Under the pieces are notes generated by a model. The model was given only the letters and a program-made list of their open reading frames with translations. It ran no database searches and had not been told where the DNA came from. This document shows, piece by piece, positions 10,296-34,208 of a DNA stretch of 34,208 bases. The position numbers were made by a program, and so were the translations under genes. This stretch comes from Prolixibacteraceae bacterium (GTDB taxonomy: Bacteria > Bacteroidota > Bacteroidia > Bacteroidales > Prolixibacteraceae), in the NCBI GenBank assembly GCA_009773765.1, contig WTWZ01000028.1:31948-66155 (forward strand). The letters run 5' to 3'. How positions within the stretch are numbered: the first letter of the stretch is position 1; every line of letters starts with the position of its first letter.

Positions 10296-11423
10296 ATGAA
10301 CTCAAAATACCTCTTTGAAAAAACACAGTTTTCACCCTATTCAGACATGAAAATCTCACCTGCAATTAACCTGGCGCAGGTGTTTGAACCCCGAAGAAAT
10401 TCATACCTGAACGAATTAACCTTATTTACCACCCTTTTTAATTCAATCCCGAATTTCATTCACGAAAAAAATATCAATTGCAAAAAAGCAAGCAATTGGT
10501 TTTCTGATACCTACAAAGCGGAAATCAAAGATTGTTATTACGACAAAATATATTTCGACAGAAACAAAACATCTGAATTTGACGATCTTTTTTATGTTAT
10601 TTACGAAGATTTGCTTATCGATTTCGACACACAAAATTCCATCGTCAGGTTTCTTTTCCGAAACACTGGAATGGAGAAAGTAGAGGGAATTATCAACGAA
10701 ATCAGAAAGTTTAAAAACCGAAAATCGAAACGCAAGCCGGAGATTTCGCTGCTTATGGTTACCAGAAACGGAATTGAAAGCAAATCGCTGACCATTGCCA
10801 AACCAAAACTGAGCATTGAAGACAACTACAACAACGATTTCAGGGAAATACACCAAACCGTCATGAAACGGCTTTCGCGGAACAACGACAAAGGACTTGT
10901 TCTTTTGCACGGAAAACCCGGAACCGGAAAGACTTCGTACATCCGTTACCTGATAACTTCGCTGCGAAAGAATGTTATTTTCCTGCCGCCAAATATGGCC
11001 GGGGCAATTACCAATCCCGATTTAATTTCGATTTTAATCGCCAATCCCAATTCAATATTTGTAATCGAAGATGCCGAAAACATTATCGTTGACCGCGAAA
11101 AAGAAGGCCACTCCCCTGTTTCTGCTTTGCTGAATATTTCCGACGGCTTGCTTTCCGACTGTCTGAATATCCAGATTATTTGTTCTTTCAACACCGACAT
11201 CACCAAAGTTGACAGTGCTTTAATGCGAAAAGGTCGGCTAATTGCGAAATACGAATTTAAGGAACTGGAACCCGAAAAAGCCAATTCCCTTTCGGTTAAA
11301 CTGGGATTTGGCGCGGCATTCAGCAAACCTGCATCGCTGACTGCAATTTATAATCAGGAAGAAATGGACTTTCAGCAGAATAAAAGACAGCATGCAATGG
11401 GATTTAAATCAGATAATTATTGA
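10296..11423 (+). CDS. AAA family ATPase (BCS1-like AAA core)
   Basis: The 375 aa protein has an N-terminal region of about 190 aa with no recognised domain and a C-terminal AAA module. Walker A is GKPGTGKTS (206-214), Walker B is SIFVIEDAE (D259 region), sensor 1 is IICSFNTDI, and the likely arginine finger segment is DSALMRKGRL. The order and the short core recall BCS1/classical AAA proteins, which remodel or thread proteins as hexamers. No membrane segment or signal peptide is seen. It is the first gene of a tight operon: its TGA ends 2 nt before the ATG of the phosphoesterase. The substrate is unknown. The N-terminal region would be the specificity part by analogy with the family. Confidence 0.82.
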   Translation: MNSKYLFEKTQFSPYSDMKISPAINLAQVFEPRRNSYLNELTLFTTLFNSIPNFIHEKNINCKKASNWFSDTYKAEIKDCYYDKIYFDRNKTSEFDDLFYVIYEDLLIDFDTQNSIVRFLFRNTGMEKVEGIINEIRKFKNRKSKRKPEISLLMVTRNGIESKSLTIAKPKLSIEDNYNNDFREIHQTVMKRLSRNNDKGLVLLHGKPGTGKTSYIRYLITSLRKNVIFLPPNMAGAITNPDLISILIANPNSIFVIEDAENIIVDREKEGHSPVSALLNISDGLLSDCLNIQIICSFNTDITKVDSALMRKGRLIAKYEFKELEPEKANSLSVKLGFGAAFSKPASLTAIYNQEEMDFQQNKRQHAMGFKSDNY

Positions 11424-11425
11424 AT

Positions 11426-12058
11426 ATGGACATCACTTTTATTTCGGATACGCATGGTTTGCACAATCGTTTAAACCTGAACGGGGGAACGCTTTTAATC
11501 CATTCAGGCGATATAACAGAATATGGGACAGAAGAAGAAGTTTTCGAATTTTTGCACTGGTTTTCAAGGCAGAATTTCAAACATAAAATCTTTATAGCCG
11601 GAAATCATGATTTGTTTTTAGAAGAATGCATTTCTGCAAAAAGGAAACGGATGATTCCTTCGGATATCATCTATCTGCAAAACAATGGGATAGAAATTGA
11701 AGGCCTGAAAATTTGGGGATCGCCGGTTACTCCCTATTTTTTAGGCATGGCTTTCAATGCCCGGCACGGAACAGAAATCAGGAAGGTTTGGGATAAAATT
11801 CCTGCCGGTACCGATATACTGATTACACACGGACCGCCTAAAGCTATTTTGGACGGTGGTGTTGGATGCGAAGAATTACTTCAAAAAGTGAATAAAATAA
11901 AACCGGCAATTCATTGTTTTGGACATGCGCACGGGCAAAATGGAATTGAAACGATCAACGGCACGGCGTTTATAAATGCCTCGGTAGTCAATTGTCTCGA
12001 TCCATTCAAATGTGCAGAATATAAGGTGATTGGCAAACCAATAATTTATAAAATCTGA
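11426..12058 (+). CDS. Calcineurin-like metallophosphoesterase
   Basis: The product is 210 aa from the ATG at 11426; the frame also has a TTG at 11420 that overlaps the previous stop and is less likely. All blocks of the two-metal phosphoesterase fold are present: D8-x-H10 in SDTHG, GD (D29) in HSGDITE, GNHD (N60, H61), H135 in ITHGPP, and GHAH (H167, H169). The size and layout are like the MPPED/239AB-type cyclic nucleotide or phosphodiester hydrolases, but the substrate is not predictable. It starts 2 nt after the AAA gene and ends 1 nt before the exonuclease gene, so the three are almost certainly translated from one message. Confidence 0.87.
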   Translation: MDITFISDTHGLHNRLNLNGGTLLIHSGDITEYGTEEEVFEFLHWFSRQNFKHKIFIAGNHDLFLEECISAKRKRMIPSDIIYLQNNGIEIEGLKIWGSPVTPYFLGMAFNARHGTEIRKVWDKIPAGTDILITHGPPKAILDGGVGCEELLQKVNKIKPAIHCFGHAHGQNGIETINGTAFINASVVNCLDPFKCAEYKVIGKPIIYKI

Positions 12059-12059
12059 C

Positions 12060-12545
12060 ATGAACACATTTACTGCCATTGATTTCGAAACCGCTCACGG
12101 CAAACGTTGGAGCATCTGCCAGGTTGGGCTGGTGCGTGTTGAAAACGGTATAATTACCGATGAACTCAGCATTTTGGTGCAGCCTCCCAACAATTTTTAC
12201 TGGAACTGGTTTATCGGCATACACCATATTACACCAGAAATGACCCGAAACGCGCCCACTTTCGATAAAATCTGGCATTTGGTTGAACCGTTTATCAAAA
12301 ACCAAACGGTAGTTGCACACAATGGATTTAGTTTCGATTTTCCGGTTCTGGCGCAAACACTTCTATATTATGGATTGGAAGTTCCTGAATACGAAAAGAA
12401 TTGTACTTACCGGATTTATAAAAGCAGTTTGTTTTCACTTTGCCAGCGGTTTCAAATTGCTTTAAACCACCACAAAGCGTTGAGTGATGCACGTGCATGT
12501 GCGGAGTTGTTTTCTTTACATTTTAAAACTGAAAATAATGATTGA
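12060..12545 (+). CDS. DEDDh 3'-5' exonuclease (DnaQ-like)
   Basis: The 161 aa protein is an exonuclease domain with nothing attached. The catalytic set is complete: D8 and E10 in AIDFET, D93 in AHNGFSFDFP, and H138 with D143 in HHKALSDARA (the HxAxxD form of DEDDh enzymes). Stand-alone enzymes of this size resemble the epsilon subunit of DNA polymerase III or oligoribonuclease-like trimmers; DNA or RNA as substrate cannot be decided here. The last 8 nt overlap the start of the next gene (ATGATTGA). Two decayed copies of its 3' end occur downstream, at 13999-14154 and 15474-15540. Confidence 0.88.
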   Translation: MNTFTAIDFETAHGKRWSICQVGLVRVENGIITDELSILVQPPNNFYWNWFIGIHHITPEMTRNAPTFDKIWHLVEPFIKNQTVVAHNGFSFDFPVLAQTLLYYGLEVPEYEKNCTYRIYKSSLFSLCQRFQIALNHHKALSDARACAELFSLHFKTENND

Positions 12546-13272
12546 AAACTGGGAAGAATTCTATGCGGAAATTGAAAAGCTTTCGTTACCCGAGTTAGAG
12601 ACAAGGATTAAGGAGTTGTATAAAGAATTCCAGAGAAGCAGAGCTTATTCAGATGACAGGTTGAATGCATGTCTTGGACAACGCAAATACCTGATAGACA
12701 GAAATTTTAAGTTTACGCCTGAAGCCGTCAGGCATATTGAACGGGTGAACCGGATATTAACGGAAAGTACGGCCAGGGTATTGCAGCGCACCGTGCTTCT
12801 TTATCGTCAGATGGTGCAACTCAAAGCACAGGGCGATGATTTTCTGGATGATTTTGAGGTAGAGGGTACGGTTGCTGTTCATTTCCGTGGTGATGAATCG
12901 GTATTAACGCTCGACGAGGATGAAAATAACGGACAGTCGGATTATGTAGCTATGGCCGATGTATTGGATTATAGTCAACTTGCTTTTGAATATTTGCGCT
13001 CGTTTACCCTCTCCGACAGGGATAATGTTGGCAGCAATGCAACCGATGAAGAACGTGAAACTGACAATATGCTGGAATTTAACTGGAATATTGAACTGCT
13101 GAGCGCTCCCGAGCTTAGTGCCATCGAATACTTTTGCTATGCCTCGCACATTCTTTTTGTTGATTCAGACTATTCAATTTCAGATTGTATCCGCATCAAC
13201 GATGTTTGGAACGAGGTGAAAGTGACGCATCAAAATTGGGGTGAAAAATTATCTACGATGGAAAAACTATGA
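12538..13272 (+). CDS. Uncharacterised protein, first of a tandem paralogue pair
   Basis: The product is 244 aa from the ATG at 12538. The frame is open further upstream inside the exonuclease gene, but the paralogue next door starts at the matching residue (MMENWEEF against MIENWEEF). I do not recognise the family. The N-terminal third is charged and helical, with likely coiled-coil (LSLPELETRIKELYKEFQ, then a helix ending RVNRILTE). The middle has an acidic strip, GDDFLDDFEVEGTV and LTLDEDENNGQSDYV. The C-terminal third is better conserved between the copies (LSAIEYFCYASHILFVDSDY, RINDVWNEVKVTH). There is no signal peptide or membrane segment. It overlaps both neighbours, so it is part of the AAA-phosphoesterase-exonuclease operon. 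Confidence 0.75.
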   Translation: MIENWEEFYAEIEKLSLPELETRIKELYKEFQRSRAYSDDRLNACLGQRKYLIDRNFKFTPEAVRHIERVNRILTESTARVLQRTVLLYRQMVQLKAQGDDFLDDFEVEGTVAVHFRGDESVLTLDEDENNGQSDYVAMADVLDYSQLAFEYLRSFTLSDRDNVGSNATDEERETDNMLEFNWNIELLSAPELSAIEYFCYASHILFVDSDYSISDCIRINDVWNEVKVTHQNWGEKLSTMEKL

Positions 13273-14012
13273 TGGAAAATTGGGAAGAATTCCGTACGGA
13301 AATTAAAAAGCTGTCGTTACCCGAATTGGAGGTAAGGATTAAGGAACTTTACAAAGAATTCCAACGACGTTACGAACGTAAAAATGAGAAATTGAACGCT
13401 TGTTTATCGCAACGCAAACGCCTCAATGATAACAATTTTAAGTTTACACCCGAAGCCGTAAAACATATTGAACGGGTGAACCGGATATTAACTGAAGGAA
13501 GGGCGAAGGTATTACAACGCTGCGGTTTTCTTTACAGGCAGTTGCTGCAAATGAAAAAGCAAGGCGATGATTTCCTGGATGATTTTGAGATAGAAGGTAC
13601 GGTTACTGTTCGGTTTAATAATGAAGATTCGGTTTTGACATTAGACGATGATGAAAATAACGGACAATCGGATTATGTTGCAATAGCAGAAGTTTTGGAA
13701 GATACTCAAACTGATTTTGAATGTCTGACATCGTTCTATTTCTCCTGGTCCAAAAATGCTGATTTTCAGGCCAGCGACGAAGAACTTGGAATCATAGACA
13801 GCAGTTTAAAGACAAATTTTAATTATGAACTTTTGGATGCTCCGGAACTCAGCCATATTGAATACTTTTGCTTTGCTTCACATGTCCTCTTTGTTGATAT
13901 GGATTACTCATTATCAGATATTATCCGCATTAACGAAGTTTGGAATGAGGTGAAAGTAACTCATAAGAATTTGGGAGTAAACGGGAACAAGCAATCCAAT
14001 GCTAAAATTTGA
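13269..14012 (+). CDS. Uncharacterised protein, second of the tandem paralogue pair
   Basis: The 247 aa protein is homologous along its whole length to the preceding gene; by eye well over half of the residues are the same. Conserved blocks include KLSLPELEVRIKELYKEFQR, NFKFTPEAVKHIERVNRIL, GDDFLDDFEIEGTV, DENNGQSDYVA and RINEVWNEVKVTH. The two copies differ most near residues 165-190 (around SWSKNADFQASDEE). Its ATG overlaps the previous stop by 4 nt, and its own 3' end runs into the relic of an exonuclease gene. The tandem copies suggest two subunits of one complex, or one copy adapted to another partner (inference). The function is unknown. Confidence 0.75.
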   Translation: MMENWEEFRTEIKKLSLPELEVRIKELYKEFQRRYERKNEKLNACLSQRKRLNDNNFKFTPEAVKHIERVNRILTEGRAKVLQRCGFLYRQLLQMKKQGDDFLDDFEIEGTVTVRFNNEDSVLTLDDDENNGQSDYVAIAEVLEDTQTDFECLTSFYFSWSKNADFQASDEELGIIDSSLKTNFNYELLDAPELSHIEYFCFASHVLFVDMDYSLSDIIRINEVWNEVKVTHKNLGVNGNKQSNAKI

Positions 14013-14154
14013 AAAGCACTGTACTTACCGTTTATTTAGAAAGAATCTTGCAACATTATGCAAAATGTTTAATATACATTTGAACCATCACGAAGCTTTG
14101 AATGATGCAAGGGCTTGTGGGGAGTTGTTTTTAATTAATTTGAATAGAAAATAA
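13999..14154 (+). pseudogene. Relic of a DEDDh exonuclease 3' end (copy 1)
   Basis: An open stretch of 51 codons matches the last quarter of the exonuclease at 12060-12545. It reads HCTYRLFRKN where that gene reads NCTYRIYKSS, and LNHHEALNDARACGELF where that gene has LNHHKALSDARACAELF. The HxAxxD tail of the active site is kept, but the DxE and middle Asp parts are absent. Nucleotide similarity is only moderate, so it comes from a diverged homologue and not from a recent duplication. It begins inside the last codons of the second paralogue. Confidence 0.8.
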
Positions 14155-14161
14155 ACTGAAT

Positions 14162-15289
14162 ATGGGAGATATAAAAAACTTGTTAAATCAAGTATCAATC
14201 ATCACAAAAAAGAACGATGAATTTCTTGACGCCACAGGAGGGCGTTTTAATATTTTCCGAATTGCAGGTGTAAACCACTATGAAAATACACACTCTGCCG
14301 TCCTTGCAGAATTATTAAATCCCAAGGGTTCACATGGATTAAAAAGTAAGTTTTTACAGGCTTTTTTGGATAGGATAAGACTCAAAGATGAATTAAAGGA
14401 CATTGATTGTGAAAATGCAAATGTAAAAACTGAAGCACCAACAGAAGATGGCAGAATAGATATTTTAATTCGAGACAATATGAGTCATTCGGTTATAATT
14501 GAGAACAAGATTTACGCTAGGGATCAGGTTCAACAGTTGAAAAAATACAATGCCCATGGGTTAAAAATCTCTAATGAAAAGTATCAGATTTTTTATTTGA
14601 CTCTTTATGGAACAGAAGCCTCTGATAATAGCGGTGGTGGTATTAACTATTCAAGAATTTCTTATGCAGATGATATTATTTCGTGGCTTGAACAATGTGT
14701 ACAGTTATCTGCTCGATACCCACTTGTTAGAGAAACAATAAATCAATATATTAATCACTTAAAAAAATTAACAAATCAAGATATGGATAAGATAAATCAA
14801 AACGAATTGGTTGAACTACTTTCAAAACCAGATAATATTAAAGCTGCCTTTAAAATTTCGGAGAATGTAAAAAATCTCAAAATTAAATTAGTTACTGATA
14901 TGGCAGAAGGAGTTGCGAAAAAATTCGCTATGGAATTTAAAGTAAATGATGATGCAAATGGCTTCTATTTTTATAAAAAGGGTTGGAAAGAAGGTGCTGG
15001 AATATGGTTTGCCGAATCCAAAGGGATGATTTATTATGCAATAAAAACAAGTGAAGCTTGTTTTGGTAAAGCAATTTTACAAATGAAGATTGTTGAACTA
15101 TTTGAACAGGAACCCATTCCATGGGATCCTTTTGGATATGGAATTGTAATGAATGACCATTGGCAGAATAATACTGAACTGTACCTTAAAATGGTCGACG
15201 GTTCTTTAGCTGAAGAAACAATAATTGTCAGACTGAAAAAGGTAATGGATTACCTCAAAGAGCATTCTGAAATTGAAGAAGTTTTATGA
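14162..15289 (+). CDS. PD-(D/E)XK nuclease superfamily protein (PDDEXK_4-like), first copy
   Basis: The product is 375 aa. The nuclease core lies in the first third: ENTHSAVLAELLNP (41-54), then GRIDILI with D100, then IIENK giving E114 and K116, then a Gln-rich helix start ARDQVQQLKKY. This is the order seen in the PDDEXK_4 family, found as stand-alone proteins in many mobile or defence-rich regions. The C-terminal half (about 200-375) is not recognised; it has aromatic-rich strands (GFYFYKKGWKEGAGIWF) that might bind a target. The gene is visibly richer in A and T than the operon before it, which suggests transfer. It starts 8 nt after the exonuclease relic, so it may be read through from the operon. 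Confidence 0.72.
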   Translation: MGDIKNLLNQVSIITKKNDEFLDATGGRFNIFRIAGVNHYENTHSAVLAELLNPKGSHGLKSKFLQAFLDRIRLKDELKDIDCENANVKTEAPTEDGRIDILIRDNMSHSVIIENKIYARDQVQQLKKYNAHGLKISNEKYQIFYLTLYGTEASDNSGGGINYSRISYADDIISWLEQCVQLSARYPLVRETINQYINHLKKLTNQDMDKINQNELVELLSKPDNIKAAFKISENVKNLKIKLVTDMAEGVAKKFAMEFKVNDDANGFYFYKKGWKEGAGIWFAESKGMIYYAIKTSEACFGKAILQMKIVELFEQEPIPWDPFGYGIVMNDHWQNNTELYLKMVDGSLAEETIIVRLKKVMDYLKEHSEIEEVL

Positions 15290-15339
15290 CTATAAGTTCA
15301 TATTTTTTCTATAGATCAAATTTAAGTACACAAATAATT

Positions 15340-15475
15340 TTAAGCTGGTTCAACAACTTTATCAAGTGGTGGAATTTCCGGAGAGGAAAACTCTTCATTT
15401 TCGATGGTAATGATTTCAGATAAAGATATAAAATTGATAACCGGTTCTTACGCAAACGCTTCAGTATTATTGAAT
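15340..15475 (-). pseudogene. Relic of an unknown minus-strand gene (related to 17467-17673)
   Basis: Read on the minus strand, 15447-15340 gives EPVINFISLSEIIT and then PPLDKVVEPA followed by a stop. The small protein at 17673-17467 ends APVIVFKPLAEIIS and LPLDKVAEPN. Just upstream, in another frame, LRNFNSIILKRLRKN matches FRKFNYTLKKL of that protein, so a frameshift separates the two parts. It lies between the two nuclease genes in a 306-nt gap (15290-15595), the rest of which holds an exonuclease relic and AT-rich sequence. Confidence 0.65.
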
Positions 15476-15540
15476 TGAAATTCCTCAGTATGAAAAGCAT
15501 TGTACTTACAGCTTATTTGAGACAATCTTGCTTCATTATG
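15474..15540 (+). pseudogene. Relic of a DEDDh exonuclease 3' end (copy 2)
   Basis: The frame from 15474 reads IEIPQYEKHCTYSLFE. The intact exonuclease has LEVPEYEKNCTYRIYK at the matching place, and the first relic has FEKHCTYRLFR. The bases also line up with 14011-14060 with a small deletion, ending in CTTGC..CATTATG in both. After that it is out of frame and soon stops. It is a third, more eroded copy of the same gene end, placed just before the second nuclease gene. Confidence 0.65.
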
Positions 15541-15595
15541 AAAAAAATATGATAAACTTTTAAATTTATTTAATCAAACTAATAAACAATTTATT

Positions 15596-16642
15596 ATGAG
15601 CAATTTAGCAAATACAAACTTATTTAAACATGCACCAAAGGAATTGGTCACAGATGCATTTATAACTTGGTTGTTTTATTTTTTAGACTGCGATGAATAT
15701 TATATGCAAAAGAAAATAGTATTCGATGAATTACTTTTAAAACCAGAGGATATTGGGAAAGAAGTTAATAAAATCAAAATAATCAAACAGCAAACCAGTA
15801 ATTTCGGTCGAACCGATATTATTCTTGAATTTAATTTAAATGGCAAAGAAGAAAAAATTCTATTTGAAAATAAAACATGGACTACCACAAATGAAAGACA
15901 ATTGAATGATTATAAAAAAGCTAATCCTGAATTTTATAAATACATCTATTTAAAACTAGCCTATGTAGATTATGAAGAATTAAAGCTCACAAAGAGATGC
16001 GGTTATGAAGTAATAGATGTTTTCAAATTATCACAGACTTTTTCAAAAATCAAAAACATCAATTTAATTCTAATGCAATATTTAGAATATATTGATTTTA
16101 CATTTAAAGATCATATTTCGCAATTCCCATTAAAATTGTTGAATGAAAATAATACCGCATTATTATGGGATGGCCAAGCACAACACTTTTTAGTAGATGA
16201 AATTTATAAACAGATAGATGGTAAAGTCAGTGGATTATGTCTTAGATATGGAAGTAGCTTTGGACGTCCGTGGACTCAATTAGATATTTACGAAACAGAT
16301 AATATATATGGCAAAACAGAAGAAAAAATCTTTTGGAGAGTAGATATAAGAGGAGGAGAATTTTATTTAAGGTTAAACCAATATGCCTATATAGATATTT
16401 CACATAAAGAGCTGAAATTAAAAAGATTAGAAAAATTAAGAGAAATTGCAAATAATATTTCGAATAAACTGTTACTAGTTGGTGGTCGATTATCAAATAA
16501 GGGACTAATGGAAAGTGAAATCATAATTTTCTTTCTTAATCAAAATAGAATCAAGTCCTTATTAGATTTAATACCTACATTTACATTAGAATTTATAGTT
16601 GAATATGAAAAGATTTTAATACCAATTGAATCGCCAAAATAA
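15596..16642 (+). CDS. PD-(D/E)XK nuclease superfamily protein, second type
   Basis: The product is 348 aa. The active-site pattern is FGRTDIILEF (D74), ILFENK (E91 and K93) and ERQLNDYKK (Q102), preceded by an N-terminal helix with KELVTDAFITWLFYFLD that stands where the family has its first conserved acid. It is a distant relative of the nuclease at 14162-15289, alike in core order but not in the C-terminal half. The rest (about 180-348) is unrecognised and contains LALW-like and GGEFYLRLNQYAYIDIS strands. The gene is very AT-rich, the most so in the window by eye, which suggests recent transfer. It is followed by a hairpin terminator and starts about 55 nt after an exonuclease relic. Confidence 0.7.
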   Translation: MSNLANTNLFKHAPKELVTDAFITWLFYFLDCDEYYMQKKIVFDELLLKPEDIGKEVNKIKIIKQQTSNFGRTDIILEFNLNGKEEKILFENKTWTTTNERQLNDYKKANPEFYKYIYLKLAYVDYEELKLTKRCGYEVIDVFKLSQTFSKIKNINLILMQYLEYIDFTFKDHISQFPLKLLNENNTALLWDGQAQHFLVDEIYKQIDGKVSGLCLRYGSSFGRPWTQLDIYETDNIYGKTEEKIFWRVDIRGGEFYLRLNQYAYIDISHKELKLKRLEKLREIANNISNKLLLVGGRLSNKGLMESEIIIFFLNQNRIKSLLDLIPTFTLEFIVEYEKILIPIESPK

Positions 16643-16765: not shown

Positions 16766-17044
16766 ATGTACCGGCTTACCTCCCCATCATCTTTGTTTGA
16801 AAAGCCAGAAATGGAAAAAGCTAAGAAAAAAAGACTCCTGAAATGCATTAAAAATGTGTACGATGCAGCCAAGGAAAACAAAGTGGAATCATCTGCCAAT
16901 GCCGGAATTGCAGAAAATGAATTCAGACTCAATTACTTTACTTTCAGCTTAATACCTGTCTTTCGAATTTCAACGGCAAACGGATTATTTGAATCGAGAT
17001 CCTTTTTTGAAATAGGATGGGGTTCAATTCTGGTGTCGATTTGA
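16766..17044 (+). CDS. Possible small hypothetical protein or gene remnant
   Basis: A 92-codon frame whose first half looks protein-like (EMEKAKKKRLLKCIKNVYDAAKENK, an amphipathic lysine-rich helix of which only part is quoted by key residues here), possibly starting at the ATG at 16811. The second half runs antisense through the 3' end of the nucleotidyltransferase gene and looks like chance coding. No family is recognised. It may be the start of a gene cut off by whatever brought in the minus-strand cassette. The gap 16643-16932 holds nothing else but the terminator. Confidence 0.25.
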   Translation: MYRLTSPSSLFEKPEMEKAKKKRLLKCIKNVYDAAKENKVESSANAGIAENEFRLNYFTFSLIPVFRISTANGLFESRSFFEIGWGSILVSI

Positions 17045-17250
17045 GCAGCTAACAACATCAATCTGACCTGGGTATCAAATCTCTCATTATCAGCCAGATC
17101 ATCTATAACCAGAGCAACATCAATATCACTTTCTGAACGTTGCATATTCCGTGCATAAGAGCCAAATATGAATGCCGAAATTAACCCTGACTGATGCCTG
17201 GCTACTGAATCGATATATCGTTTTACAGTTTCACGAATTCCTTTATCCAT
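16933..17250 (-). CDS. MNT-type nucleotidyltransferase (antitoxin of a HEPN/MNT pair)
   Basis: The 105 aa minimal nucleotidyltransferase has the signature FIFGSYARNMQRSESDIDVAL: G30-S31, then D42 and D44 as metal ligands, and a third acid likely in IDTRIEP (D72). In HEPN/MNT modules this protein neutralises the HEPN RNase, in the characterised cases by AMP-ylating it. Its ATG lies inside the tail of the HEPN gene, the usual arrangement, but that HEPN gene is broken (see 17223-17403). The MNT reading frame itself looks complete. Confidence 0.82.
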   Translation of the reverse strand: MDKGIRETVKRYIDSVARHQSGLISAFIFGSYARNMQRSESDIDVALVIDDLADNERFDTQVRLMLLAAQIDTRIEPHPISKKDLDSNNPFAVEIRKTGIKLKVK

Positions 17251-17805: not shown

Positions 17806-18702
17806 ATGTCGGTAAGAGAAACAATATTACGGTATCATTTGATCATCAGTAAACTACGGAAACATCCGGTAACTTTTAACGAGTTGGCAGATTTTCTTGA
17901 ACGTGAATCGGATTTTCACGGGAATACGCTTACAAAAGCCAAACGCACCATCCAGCGGGATTTTGATGCTATCCGCTCCATTTACAACATCGATATCCGT
18001 TTCGATTTCAGGCGCGGAGTTTATGTGCTCGACCCTGACGAAAACCAGGAAAAAAACCTGCGGATGGTGGAAGCGCTCGATTTGTTCAATGCCATGAAAG
18101 TAACCGAAAATATCTCGGGAATTATCCATTTCGAAAAACGCCGTCCTCAGGGTACTGAAAACATGAACGGACTGTTACACGCCATTCAGCGCCGTGTGCA
18201 AATAGAATTTACCTATTCAAAGTACTGGGAAAATGTATCAACCCAACGAATAGCAGAACCGTATGCGCTGAAGGAGTTTAAAAACCGCTGGTACCTGGTG
18301 GCGCTGGATCATAAAGACCTCAGAATAAAAACCTTCGCCCTCGACCGCCTGACCGATCTTGAAATTACAAAACGTAAATTTCAGCATCCGCAAAAGTTTG
18401 ATGTTAACGAGTATTTCAAACATTGTTTTGGTATTATCACTGCTGAAGGTGAAGAACCGCATGATATAGTTTTGTCGTTCGAACCGACCCAGGGAAAATA
18501 CATAAAGTCGCTGCCCTTACATGAATCGCAGGAAGTGCTGATTGATAATGAACAGGAAATTCGAATCAAAATCAAAATATTTCTGACGCATGATTTTCTG
18601 ATGGAAATCCTTTCGCACGGTGAAAATGTGAAAGTGATTGAACCTGCCGGTTTAATTGAAAGCCTGATAACAAGTTATCAGAACGCACTAAAACAATACT
18701 AA
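17806..18702 (+). CDS. WYL-domain transcriptional regulator
   Basis: The 298 aa protein has an N-terminal helix-turn-helix of the DeoR/HTH_11 kind (about 1-70, ILRYHLIISKLRKHPVTFNE then TKAKRTIQRDFDAIRSIYNI), a WYL domain (about 120-200, with IEFTYSKYW, PYALKEFKNRWYLVALD and FALDRLTDLEI), and a C-terminal WCX extension (about 205-298). WYL proteins bind nucleic-acid-like ligands and often control CRISPR and other defence genes. It may regulate itself, the cassette region to its left, or the small gene that starts 2 nt after it. The link to the nearby nuclease genes is inference from position only. Confidence 0.87.
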   Translation: MSVRETILRYHLIISKLRKHPVTFNELADFLERESDFHGNTLTKAKRTIQRDFDAIRSIYNIDIRFDFRRGVYVLDPDENQEKNLRMVEALDLFNAMKVTENISGIIHFEKRRPQGTENMNGLLHAIQRRVQIEFTYSKYWENVSTQRIAEPYALKEFKNRWYLVALDHKDLRIKTFALDRLTDLEITKRKFQHPQKFDVNEYFKHCFGIITAEGEEPHDIVLSFEPTQGKYIKSLPLHESQEVLIDNEQEIRIKIKIFLTHDFLMEILSHGENVKVIEPAGLIESLITSYQNALKQY

Positions 18703-22623: not shown

Positions 22624-22756
22624 TATTGCACTTCAGTTTAAAAAATAATAAAACAGCGTTAAGGAAATCAAAATTTTGGTTTCCTTTTTTTATTTTCTAA
22701 ATTCGAAAAGTTTGGCACGAATTAAACAGTGTATATTTTTTAAATCATTTTTGGAT

Positions 22757-23566
22757 ATGATTTGCAAAATAACGTTGAACGATGTGGTTATAGAAAGCTG
22801 GGCGCACCTGGTGGAAGAAGTATATCATGATGCCTGGAAACCTAAGTTGGGAAGGTTTCGGAGCGATTATGCCTTTCGGGGATTGTCGGATTGCACCTAC
22901 CGGCTGGAAAACAGTTTCCTGCGGAATTGTGGCAACCGGCCGGAGCTTGAGTATCATATTTTGCGCAATTTCAGGAAGTACGCGCGCACCAGCGAACCCA
23001 ACCTCACCAACACGCAGTTGCGCTCACTGGTTTTGGCACAGCACCACGGATTGCCAACCCGTTTGATGGACTGGACCTATTCGCCCTTTATAGCCATGCA
23101 TTTTGCCACATCCAGCACCGAAAAATCCGATATCGATGGCGTAATCTGGAAAATTGATTTTGTAAAGGTTAACTGTTTGGCGCCAAAACCGCTTAAAAAA
23201 TTGCTGTCGAAAGAAAAGTGCAATGCTTTTACAATTGAAATGCTTGAATCGGAATTTTCTAACCTGCAAAAGTTCGATGAAGTAATTGGAAAAGGAAATG
23301 TCATTTTTTTCGAGCCACCTTCCATCGATGACCGCATTGTAAATCAATTTGCCTTGTTTTCCATTATGTCGGATGCCGCTTCTGTTTTGGACGAATGGCT
23401 TACCGAGCGGCCTGAATTGTACCGCAGGTTAATCATTCCGGCAAAGTTAAAATGGGAAATCCGCGACAAACTCGACCAGTCGAATATTACCGAAAGGGTT
23501 TTGTTCCCTGGGCTCGATGGATTGGCGCGCTGGTTGAAAAGACATTATCAACCAAAAGACATTTAA
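22757..23566 (+). CDS. FRG-domain protein
   Basis: The product is 269 aa from the ATG at 22757; the frame also opens at a TTG at 22676, but the stretch between is not protein-like. The FRG motif itself is YAFRGLSD (residues 39-46), followed by the conserved LVLAQHHGLPTRLMDWT and SPFIAMHFA blocks. FRG proteins are found in many phages, toxin-like operons and defence islands; a role in nucleotide or NAD handling has been proposed for the family, but no reaction is settled. No signal peptide is seen. No obvious partner gene flanks it, so it stands as an orphan. Confidence 0.83.
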   Translation: MICKITLNDVVIESWAHLVEEVYHDAWKPKLGRFRSDYAFRGLSDCTYRLENSFLRNCGNRPELEYHILRNFRKYARTSEPNLTNTQLRSLVLAQHHGLPTRLMDWTYSPFIAMHFATSSTEKSDIDGVIWKIDFVKVNCLAPKPLKKLLSKEKCNAFTIEMLESEFSNLQKFDEVIGKGNVIFFEPPSIDDRIVNQFALFSIMSDAASVLDEWLTERPELYRRLIIPAKLKWEIRDKLDQSNITERVLFPGLDGLARWLKRHYQPKDI

Positions 23567-32792: not shown

Positions 32793-32880
32793 GGAGAGAT
32801 GCCAGAGCGGCCGAATGGGGCGGTCTCGAAAACCGTTGTCCCGCCACGCGGGACCGAGGGTTCGAATCCCTCTCTCTCCG
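32793..32880 (+). tRNA. tRNA-Ser (anticodon CGA)
   Basis: The 88-nt cloverleaf has a 7-bp acceptor stem GGAGAGA with TCTCTCC and discriminator G at 32880. The anticodon loop CTCGAAA gives CGA (32827-32829), which reads UCG. The long variable arm GTCCCGC/GCGGGAC is a mark of tRNA-Ser, and the T arm is GAGGG-TTCGAAT-CCCTC. CCA is not encoded (CTGG follows). Confidence 0.95.
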
Positions 32881-32991
32881 CTGGTTTTTCATCTATATTA
32901 ACGATAAACTACAACTAATAAGCATTAAATGGTTATTTTACTGAATTAGACTTTAAAGCACATCCAATCAGGTTTGCCATAGGATGTCTGT
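32881..32991. other. AT-rich spacer between tRNA and CRISPR array
   Basis: This 111-nt stretch contains no gene. By the repeat orientation it is the trailer end of the array rather than the leader. No repeat remnant or terminator hairpin is seen in it. Confidence 0.5.
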
Positions 32992-34208
32992 GTTTCAATC
33001 CTTGTTTTTTTGGAAGTGGGGTTTTAAGACCAATAACCCATCGGGAATATTTCCTATATTCAAGTTTCAATCCTTGTTTTTTTGGAAGTGGGGTTTTAAG
33101 ACCAATAGCTTTCATTGATATACCAATACTTTCCCCGTTTCAATCCTTGTTTTTTTGGAAGTGGGGTTTTAAGTGGCGTATCCAACTTTGCAATTTTGAT
33201 TGCACCTGAGTTTCAATCCTTGTTTTTTTGGAAGTGGGGTTTTAAGAAGGTTGCGGTGTATATTATGGTGCACATTGGGTAGTTTCAATCCTTGTTTTTT
33301 TGGAAGTGGGGTTTTAAGACCTGGTCGTCCTTGGGTTTGTCTTTCCAGTTCGCGGTTTCAATCCTTGTTTTTTTGGAAGTGGGGTTTTAAGCGCTATCGC
33401 GGGGTGATGTGCATTGGCCGGGTGCAAAGTTTCAATCCTTGTTTTTTTGGAAGTGGGGTTTTAAGTTATCGACATACACATTTCCACCTTCGAGGGATCA
33501 AGTTTCAATCCTTGTTTTTTTGGAAGTGGGGTTTTAAGATAAAAATTGCGCTGTTCAGGTTTTTAAGAACAAAATGTTTCAATCCTTGTTTTTTTGGAAG
33601 TGGGGTTTTAAGACGCTGGTACGGCTTGAAAAATAGGAATTGGATTACGTTTCAATCCTTGTTTTTTTGGAAGTGGGGTTTTAAGATAGTACCCCCGCCT
33701 ATATTATACCAGTTGCAATTGTTTCAATCCTTGTTTTTTTGGAAGTGGGGTTTTAAGATCATACAACCTGGGGCAAACAAAGGACTGTAATATGTTTCAA
33801 TCCTTGTTTTTTTGGAAGTGGGGTTTTAAGAGCAGTATTACGTATGCCTGTCGTATTTGAACTAAGGTTTCAATCCTTGTTTTTTTGGAAGTGGGGTTTT
33901 AAGTTTGGGCAGAGGCGTTTTGGTTTTGAATGTAATCCCCTGGTTTCAATCCTTGTTTTTTTGGAAGTGGGGTTTTAAGTTGAGGCAGCCCTTTTTTTGT
34001 TATTTAGAACCTTTAGTTTCAATCCTTGTTTTTTTGGAAGTGGGGTTTTAAGCCTATACACGGTGTTACAGGCTGCCCTTTTAGGGTTTGTTTCAATCCT
34101 TGTTTTTTTGGAAGTGGGGTTTTAAGACTTTTGACAGTGTTAACAACTGTTATAATATTGCAGTTTCAATCCTTGTTTTTTTGGAAGTGGGGTTTTAAGA
34201 AAATAGAC
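32992..34208 (-). CRISPR. CRISPR array, 17 repeats in window, truncated by the right edge
   Basis: A 37-nt repeat starts on the plus strand with GTTTCAATCC, has a run of seven T in the middle and ends GTGGGGTTTTAAG. It occurs 17 times, at 32992, 33064, 33137, 33210, 33282, 33355, 33429, 33502, 33576, 33649, 33721, 33794, 33867, 33943, 34016, 34090 and 34163; all copies look identical. The 16 complete spacers are 35-39 nt (mostly 36) and all different. A 17th spacer is cut by the window end. On the minus strand the repeat ends in GGATTGAAAC, the usual 8-nt crRNA handle ATTGAAAC of type I-A/B/D and type III systems. The array is therefore probably transcribed right to left, with the leader outside the window. 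No cas gene is present here. Confidence 0.97.

What the first reader, a model, noticed from the sequence alone, without database searches (positions are those of the whole stretch)
12399..15540. Exonuclease 3' ends repeated between successive payload genes
The intact exonuclease ends at 12545. Its terminal coding part recurs as a relic at 13999-14154, just after the paralogue pair, and again, more eroded, at 15474-15540, just before the second nuclease. The blocks thus read: exonuclease, two unknown genes, exonuclease tail, nuclease, exonuclease tail, nuclease. The tails are diverged from the intact gene and closer to each other. This looks like a site where cassettes, each with its own exonuclease tail, are swapped in by recombination at the 3' end of the exonuclease gene, much as integrating elements duplicate a gene end.
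Basis: partly seen in the sequence, partly recalled or inferred. Interest (0 to 1): 0.72.

Follow-up and report, generated by a model that had tools for sequence, protein, structure and literature searches.

The report
Defence-gene swap site with scars
In this bacterium, genes that look like defence genes seem to have been slotted in one after another behind an exonuclease gene, and two cut-off tails of that gene were left behind as scars of earlier swaps.

Summary
An intact DEDDh-type exonuclease gene (12060-12545) is followed by two orphan copies of its 3' third: tail B (about 14005-14154, open) and tail C (about 15441-15565, broken). No other copy reached E 0.001 in the genome. Over a shared 81 bases both tails are closer to the exonuclease of another genus (81-85%) than to the intact gene (58-61%).

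In relatives the 3' end of this exonuclease appears to be a payload-swap point. In several pairs the DNA is 80-91% identical up to the last 60-170 bases of the gene, then unlike through a defence-type payload (GmrSD, McrBC, PD-(D/E)XK and others). In three pairs checked, identity resumes within 12 bases of a WYL regulator's start. Two loci have no payload. One other genome has an orphan exonuclease tail abutting a GmrSD pair.

Best reading: incoming DNA anchors by homology in the exonuclease. Most events replace the payload cleanly; in the window two events added a payload and pushed the old tail and old payload downstream. This works like T6SS/Rhs orphan arrays. No integrase was found, the crossover signal in the intact gene is only moderate, and defence function is inferred from family names.

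The parts
12060..12545 (+). intact DEDDh-type exonuclease, the anchor gene
   Evidence: RNase_T PF00929 1.4e-16; PADLOC DEDDh 1.5e-24; PolC-type exonuclease 2p1j 1.5e-9
12387..12545 (+). 3' third of the exonuclease, proposed exchanged end
   Evidence: 5' part nearest L033/L065, 3' part nearest L068/L034; tests of moderate strength
12538..13272 (+). payload gene pA, unknown family; its start overlaps the exonuclease stop
   Evidence: no Pfam family at its curated cut-off; relatives in 4 other genomes of 140 in the family, all genus g15
13269..14012 (+). payload gene pB, paralogue of pA (67% identity); its stop lies inside tail B
   Evidence: sequence
14005..14154 (+). tail B: orphan exonuclease 3' end, open frame
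14162..15289 (+). payload nuclease 1, PD-(D/E)XK (PDDEXK_4), PADLOC candidate PDC-S26
   Evidence: PF14281 3.6e-36; PDC-S26 3.4e-95
15441..15565 (+). tail C: second orphan exonuclease 3' end, decayed
15596..16642 (+). payload nuclease 2, distant PD-(D/E)XK-like
   Evidence: weak PADLOC matches PtuB 7.9e-5 and PDC-S26 1.4e-4; no Pfam match at 0.1; one relative at 38% in 140 genomes of the family, next to a WYL gene
17806..18702 (+). WYL regulator, proposed far border of the payload slot
   Evidence: PF13280 3.6e-16; WYL within 10 kb on the same strand in 28 of 42 loci with exonuclease identity of 59% or more, window included
10296..11423 (+). AAA ATPase upstream; a homologue stands before the exonuclease in 6 of the 41 other loci of 59% identity or more
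   Evidence: PF00004 5.6e-11
11420..12058 (+). metallophosphoesterase (PADLOC candidate PDC-S10) between AAA and exonuclease
   Evidence: AAA plus MPE homologues also in L119, L122, L124, L125, where no exonuclease was found

Best explanation
The locus is a swap site for defence-type genes. The exonuclease gene is the fixed left border and a WYL regulator is often the right border. Incoming DNA carrying a related exonuclease 3' end plus a payload pairs with the resident exonuclease and crosses over in its last third, so the exonuclease stays whole but receives a new tail and a new neighbour. If the other end also recombines by homology (WYL side), the old payload is replaced cleanly. If it is joined by chance, the cut-off old exonuclease tail and the old payload stay behind, shifted downstream. 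The window would record at least two such additions: first tail B + nuclease 1 in front of tail C + nuclease 2, then the present exonuclease tail + pA/pB in front of tail B + nuclease 1. Shown: the relics and the greater decay of the farther one, payload variation behind one exonuclease, sharp DNA borders in relatives, loci without payload, and one other orphan tail with a payload. Inferred: the homology-plus-chance joining, the order of events, and anti-phage function.
For: Relics far above chance and the only ones found in the genome. Clean swaps in relatives: L039 vs L051 share 88.9% DNA from 1.85 kb upstream through the exonuclease, no blastn match at 1e-8 in the payload beyond it, and 92% again from 2 nt before the WYL start; L057 vs L051 likewise (80.6%, 89.6%). 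Of 15 hand-picked pairs in 60-nt windows, 11 of 13 with different or diverged payloads fall within exonuclease nt 300-480; L034-L068 and L076-L079 do not; the two near-identical same-payload pairs show no fall. Payload classes behind the exonuclease: GmrSD, McrBC, PDDEXK_4, a 1377-aa TmtA-like protein, UDG-like. WYL follows with no payload between in L147 (120 bp) and L074 (156 bp). In L035 about 2.8 kb sits between the exonuclease and a GmrSD block that directly follows it in L040. Orphan tail + GmrSD pair in L174. Tail C matches the intact gene 36/45 before nt 328 and 47/80 after; L065 28/45 and 68/80 (Fisher p 0.018 and 0.007, border chosen after seeing the data). In the 3' tree window+L068+L034 (98/93) and tail B+L033+L065 (97/94) are separate starred groups.
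Against: The crossover in the intact gene is not proven: AU tests did not reject window+L068+L034 in the 5' part (p 0.077) nor window+L033+L065 in the 3' part (0.088 with tail B, 0.36 without) (groups named after identities had been seen). The best split of 47 scored informative sites was reached by 134 of 2000 permutations. Exonuclease tail and payload co-vary only weakly: partial r 0.168 (15 of 5000 permutations, 38 loci), 0.092 without near-identical pairs (327 of 5000, 36 loci). No tail relic in the other 58 loci scanned. Tail B is not specially close to exonucleases of other PDDEXK_4 units. None of 7 pA relatives has an exonuclease tail before it.
Confidence: 0.62

Rival explanations
1. 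Tandem whole exonuclease-payload operons accumulated, and later deletions removed the 5' parts of the downstream exonucleases, leaving tails.
For: Decayed or internally deleted exonucleases exist elsewhere (L173, L175, L176; in-frame deletion in L081).
Against: Both window tails lack the 5' side and no exonuclease 5' fragment was listed elsewhere in the window. L174 shows a tail and no other exonuclease piece in 17 kb at 1e-3.
Confidence: 0.2
2. A site-specific integrating element targets the exonuclease 3' end and restores it, as tRNA-targeting islands do.
For: The duplicated piece is a gene 3' end and the gene is kept whole. Tail B begins near the best-conserved block.
Against: No recombinase among the 10 window proteins scanned (other ORFs not scanned; pA/pB are of unknown family). 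The copies share at most 11 exact bp and start at different places (nt 283 and about 328). Borders in relatives vary over nt 300-480 or lie beyond the gene.
Confidence: 0.07
3. The tails are remnants of gene decay in a generally fluid defence island; payloads arrive anywhere and the exonuclease is only a frequent neighbour.
For: The island also varies elsewhere: AAA and MPE occur with other neighbours; exonuclease-payload co-variation is weak.
Against: Sharp identity borders inside the exonuclease and at the WYL start in several pairs; exonuclease-WYL loci without payload.
Confidence: 0.11

Closest known systems
Vibrio cholerae T6SS effector-immunity arrays (Kirchberger et al. 2017, PMC5361080; abstract and two sections read)
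   Same: A conserved upstream region serves as anchor, a new module is inserted in front, and older modules and in one case a shifted 3' end of the old effector remain downstream. The paper proposes homology-facilitated illegitimate recombination and thinks clean replacement likely the commoner route.
   Different: There the exchanged 3' end encodes a toxin part and immunity genes are kept. Here the exchanged end is the rest of an exonuclease and the payloads are nuclease/restriction-type genes.
Rhs main gene with orphan C-terminal tips (Koskiniemi et al. 2014, PMC3967940; passages read)
   Same: Displaced gene 3' fragments lie downstream, each with its own linked gene.
   Different: Rhs orphans can be fused back to the main gene. 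Here the copies share at most 11 exact bp, so such fusion is expected to be inefficient (inference).
Enterobacterial immigration control region (review PMC12707154; one section and passages read)
   Same: Variable McrBC, GmrSD and other restriction genes between conserved anchor genes; an empty site is known; the section contrasts it with a neighbouring hotspot that does carry an integrase.
   Different: Different anchors and phylum; the section read reports no orphan anchor-gene tails.
WYL/BrxR regulators near defence systems (Picton et al. 2022, PMC9122601; passages read)
   Same: A WYL gene sits with varied defence genes.
   Different: The words 'exonuclease' and 'Bacteroid' do not occur in that paper's main text.

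Membership tests
Displaced orphan arrays (T6SS/Rhs type) | constant 5' gene part with variable 3' end and variable downstream genes | tested here: met
   (11 of 13 payload-different pairs; pairs hand-picked)
Displaced orphan arrays (T6SS/Rhs type) | orphan 3' fragments downstream, each next to its own payload | tested here: met
   tails B and C; L174
Displaced orphan arrays (T6SS/Rhs type) | newest module next to the main gene, oldest last | tested here: inconclusive
   tail C is more decayed than tail B; L035 has extra DNA next to the exonuclease compared with L040, but gain was not told from loss
Displaced orphan arrays (T6SS/Rhs type) | exchanged end encodes a toxin with a cognate immunity gene | tested here: not met
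   the exchanged end encodes the exonuclease C-terminal part
Site-specific integrating element at a gene 3' end | integrase with the element | tested here: inconclusive
   none among 10 window proteins scanned with Pfam; pA/pB are of unknown family and remaining ORFs were not scanned
Site-specific integrating element at a gene 3' end | short identical att repeats | tested here: not met
   longest exact matches between the copies are 11, 11 and 9 bp
Defence hotspot between anchor genes | different defence-type genes between the same anchors, and empty sites | tested here: met
Defence hotspot between anchor genes | payloads protect against phages | not testable with these tools
   family names only

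The most novel reading that the evidence does not exclude
The exonuclease is a dedicated docking gene: its 3' third is the shared handle by which Bacteroidota trade defence modules across families, and stacked tails keep older modules as a reserve that could be brought back behind the exonuclease by tail-to-tail deletion.
Probability: 0.12. Interest if true: 0.72.

Novelty: new variant of a known kind. Interest (0 to 1): 0.52.

Why it matters
How defence genes move in and out of fixed genome sites without an integrase is poorly understood (my own view of the field). This locus would show one route, with scars that suggest direction and order, and a small conserved gene that acts as the handle. 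It also points to the exonuclease-WYL pair as bait for finding new defence genes in Bacteroidota, including the unknown pA/pB family.

Tried and rejected
Tandem duplication of one payload: nuclease 1 and nuclease 2 show no significant similarity (E 0.23), so rejected as the source of the array; pA/pB themselves are a pair of paralogues. Exonuclease tail in front of pA homologues: none in 7 relatives (by eye on translations of 240 nt, and by HMM); L123 begins inside pA and was not examined. Phage origin: a scan of viral contigs for close relatives confirmed none (5 pattern matches, none kept). Clean mosaic map of the intact exonuclease: informative sites are mixed after nt 190 and the split is not significant, so I name no donor for its 3' end. 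Apparent short-frame tails: of 9 fetched, L174 is tail-only; L173, L175 and L176 are decayed or internally deleted exonucleases; L177 and L180 are cut by contig ends; L178 is a near-complete exonuclease in two frames; L179 and L181 showed no exonuclease match at 1e-3. Literature: no paper describing an exonuclease-WYL payload site appeared in the listings of searches (two found nothing at all); this library lacks most subscription journals. Rows dropped: one search left out L043 (near-identical to L039), L047 and L061 (short contigs), L066 and L067 (remote) and duplicates L069, L070, L112, L113; one search left out L043 and 12 remote loci, and loci without a called gene behind the exonuclease. 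Pairs (21; 15) were chosen by hand.

Full report
What is there. G000 has 4,269,778 bases in 118 contigs. Between 10.3 and 18.7 kb stand, on the + strand, an AAA ATPase, a metallophosphoesterase (PADLOC candidate PDC-S10), a DEDDh-type exonuclease, two paralogues of unknown family (pA, pB; 67% identity), a PD-(D/E)XK nuclease (PDDEXK_4, PADLOC candidate PDC-S26), a second nuclease that matches PtuB and PDC-S26 models only weakly, and a WYL regulator. 'Defence' here rests on these family names, not on any test.

The relics. At E 0.001 the exonuclease query finds three places in the whole genome: the gene and the two relics. The alignment scores are about twice the best of 1000 shuffles. Tail B covers aa 110-156 without a stop. 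Tail C starts further upstream (aa 95), has one in-frame stop and a 1-nt gap from 15441 on, and lacks the end of the gene; two further stops that one search counts lie just before 15441. The stop of pB lies inside tail B, and pB departs from pA just before that point, as expected if pB was cut when it was joined to the tail (inference). Nuclease 2 begins about 30 bases after the last aligned base of tail C.

Whose tails they are. Over exonuclease nt 328-408 tail B is 81% and tail C 85% identical to L065 (genome G109, genus g18), 76% to each other, and 61% and 58% to the intact gene. Before nt 328 tail C is instead nearest the intact gene (36/45; L065 28/45). So the intact gene seems to share its front part with what was there before, and to differ from about nt 330 on, near where tail B starts. 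The two Fisher tests (0.018, 0.007) used a border chosen after seeing the data. Trees agree in direction: in the 3' part the intact gene groups with L068+L034 (98/93) and tail B with L033+L065 (97/94); in the 5' part the intact gene is with L033+L065 at 72/88. Formal tests are mixed. In the 3' part window+tail B (p 0.030) and, in a tree without tail B, window+L033 (0.015) are rejected. Window+L068+L034 in the 5' part (0.077) and window+L033+L065 in the 3' part (0.088; 0.36 without tail B) are not. An informative-site map is mixed after nt 190 (134 of 2000 permutations reach the best split). I therefore treat the crossover as likely but not proven, and name no donor.

Relatives. A scan of GTDB genomes gave 35 loci; searches of 199, 140 and 393 genomes gave more. 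Of 42 loci with exonuclease identity of 59% or more, the window included, 28 have a WYL homologue within 10 kb on the same strand; of 14 more remote loci, 1 does. Of the 14 misses, 9 have under 6 kb of contig behind the exonuclease. A WYL homologue at E 1e-20 occurs 16 times in 31 genomes, so the linkage is far from chance. The genes directly behind the exonuclease are varied: GmrSD families in many loci, McrB-like AAA genes (L054, L068; McrC confirmed by Pfam in L054), PDDEXK_4 (L036, L048), a 1377-aa TmtA-like protein (L034), a UDG-like protein (L062), and unknowns. In L147 and L074 the WYL gene follows the exonuclease after 120 and 156 bp, that is, without a payload.

Swaps at DNA level. 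L039 (Parapedobacter defluvii) and L051 (complete chromosome, Bacteroidetes bacterium UKL13-3) are 88.9% identical over 2.3 kb that end with the exonuclease, have no blastn match at 1e-8 in the payload, and are 92% identical again from 2 nt before the WYL start. L057 (Algoriphagus antarcticus) against L051 gives 80.6% and 89.6% with the same borders; L057 against L053 resumes 12 nt before WYL (WYL positions). Flavobacterium loci L042 and L045 against L049 show the same left border and about 82% flanks; in L049 about 4 kb behind the exonuclease are missing. Of 13 hand-picked payload-different pairs, 11 fall in exonuclease nt 300-480; in L034-L068 and L076-L079 identity runs on beyond the gene, so the border is not always inside it. 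The two near-identical same-payload pairs show no fall. L035 differs from L040 by about 2.8 kb placed between the exonuclease and a GmrSD block that both share; no tail relic was seen there.

Other relics. Of 59 loci scanned with all exonucleases, the window is the only one with a clear relic (L065's hit is its own first codons). A wider search with tail B itself in 393 and 140 genomes and a look at nine candidates gave one more tail-only case: L174 (genome G486, another family of the order). About 31 codons of exonuclease end there 4 bp before a GmrSD pair, and no full exonuclease was listed for that genome. Three further candidates (L173, L175, L176) are decayed or internally deleted exonucleases.

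Against the reading. Payload families also occur without tails: pA relatives in four genomes of genus g15 stand in loci with AAA, MPE or WYL homologues but without this exonuclease and without a tail. Nuclease-1 relatives sit behind a whole exonuclease (L036, L048) or near a WYL gene (L115, L116). Tail B is not specially close to the exonucleases of L036, L048 or L050; the last two score below the window's own gene. Across loci the exonuclease tail follows the payload only weakly once the front part is allowed for (partial r 0.168, 15 of 5000 permutations, 38 loci; 0.092, 327 of 5000, 36 loci without near-identical pairs; the reverse control is null at 599 and 1339 of 2000).

Mechanism. The pattern is what homology-facilitated illegitimate recombination would leave: one end anchored by homology, the other joined by chance. 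Kirchberger et al. proposed this for V. cholerae T6SS arrays and thought clean homologous replacement likely commoner (PMC5361080, two sections read). The same two outcomes are seen here: several clean swaps and few scarred loci. That the swaps use this route, and that DNA arrived by transformation or conjugation, is inference. An integrase is unlikely on present evidence but not excluded. Present-day switching between the tails is unlikely to be efficient, with 11 exact bases at most (inference).

Verdict. A real and informative scar at what looks like a payload-swap site. The process is known in toxin loci, and defence hotspots are well known. What seems new, within the searches made, is an exonuclease 3' end as the anchor of a defence-type swap site in Bacteroidota, with stacked orphan tails.

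Noticed in passing
window 32992-34208: CRISPR-like array with 17 copies of a 37-nt repeat, spacing 72-76, running to the window's end, behind a tRNA-Ser gene at 32793-32881.
   Followed up: partly
L050, L052, L062, L065 (exonuclease); also L024, L031: Exonuclease genes interrupted by single in-frame stop codons while the frame is otherwise kept: loss of the exonuclease may be common.
   Followed up: no
L081:1098-1445: Exonuclease with an in-frame deletion of about aa 53-92 that ends at the FDF/PVL motif, near where tail C begins.
   Followed up: no
window 16933-17250 (-): Small nucleotidyltransferase-like ORF (named by eye) between nuclease 2 and the WYL gene; a similar fragment lies near the exonuclease in L068.
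   Followed up: no
L119, L121, L122: g15 genomes carry the AAA ATPase and a pA homologue, in L119 and L122 also the metallophosphoesterase and an ATPase-like gene (by eye), without the exonuclease: pA may belong to a larger modular island.
   Followed up: partly
window 22676-23566: FRG-domain protein (PF08867 8.4e-25; PADLOC PDC-S15) outside the island.
   Followed up: no
L178:3936-9786: Reverse layout: WYL, a GmrSD pair, then an exonuclease in two frames downstream.
   Followed up: no
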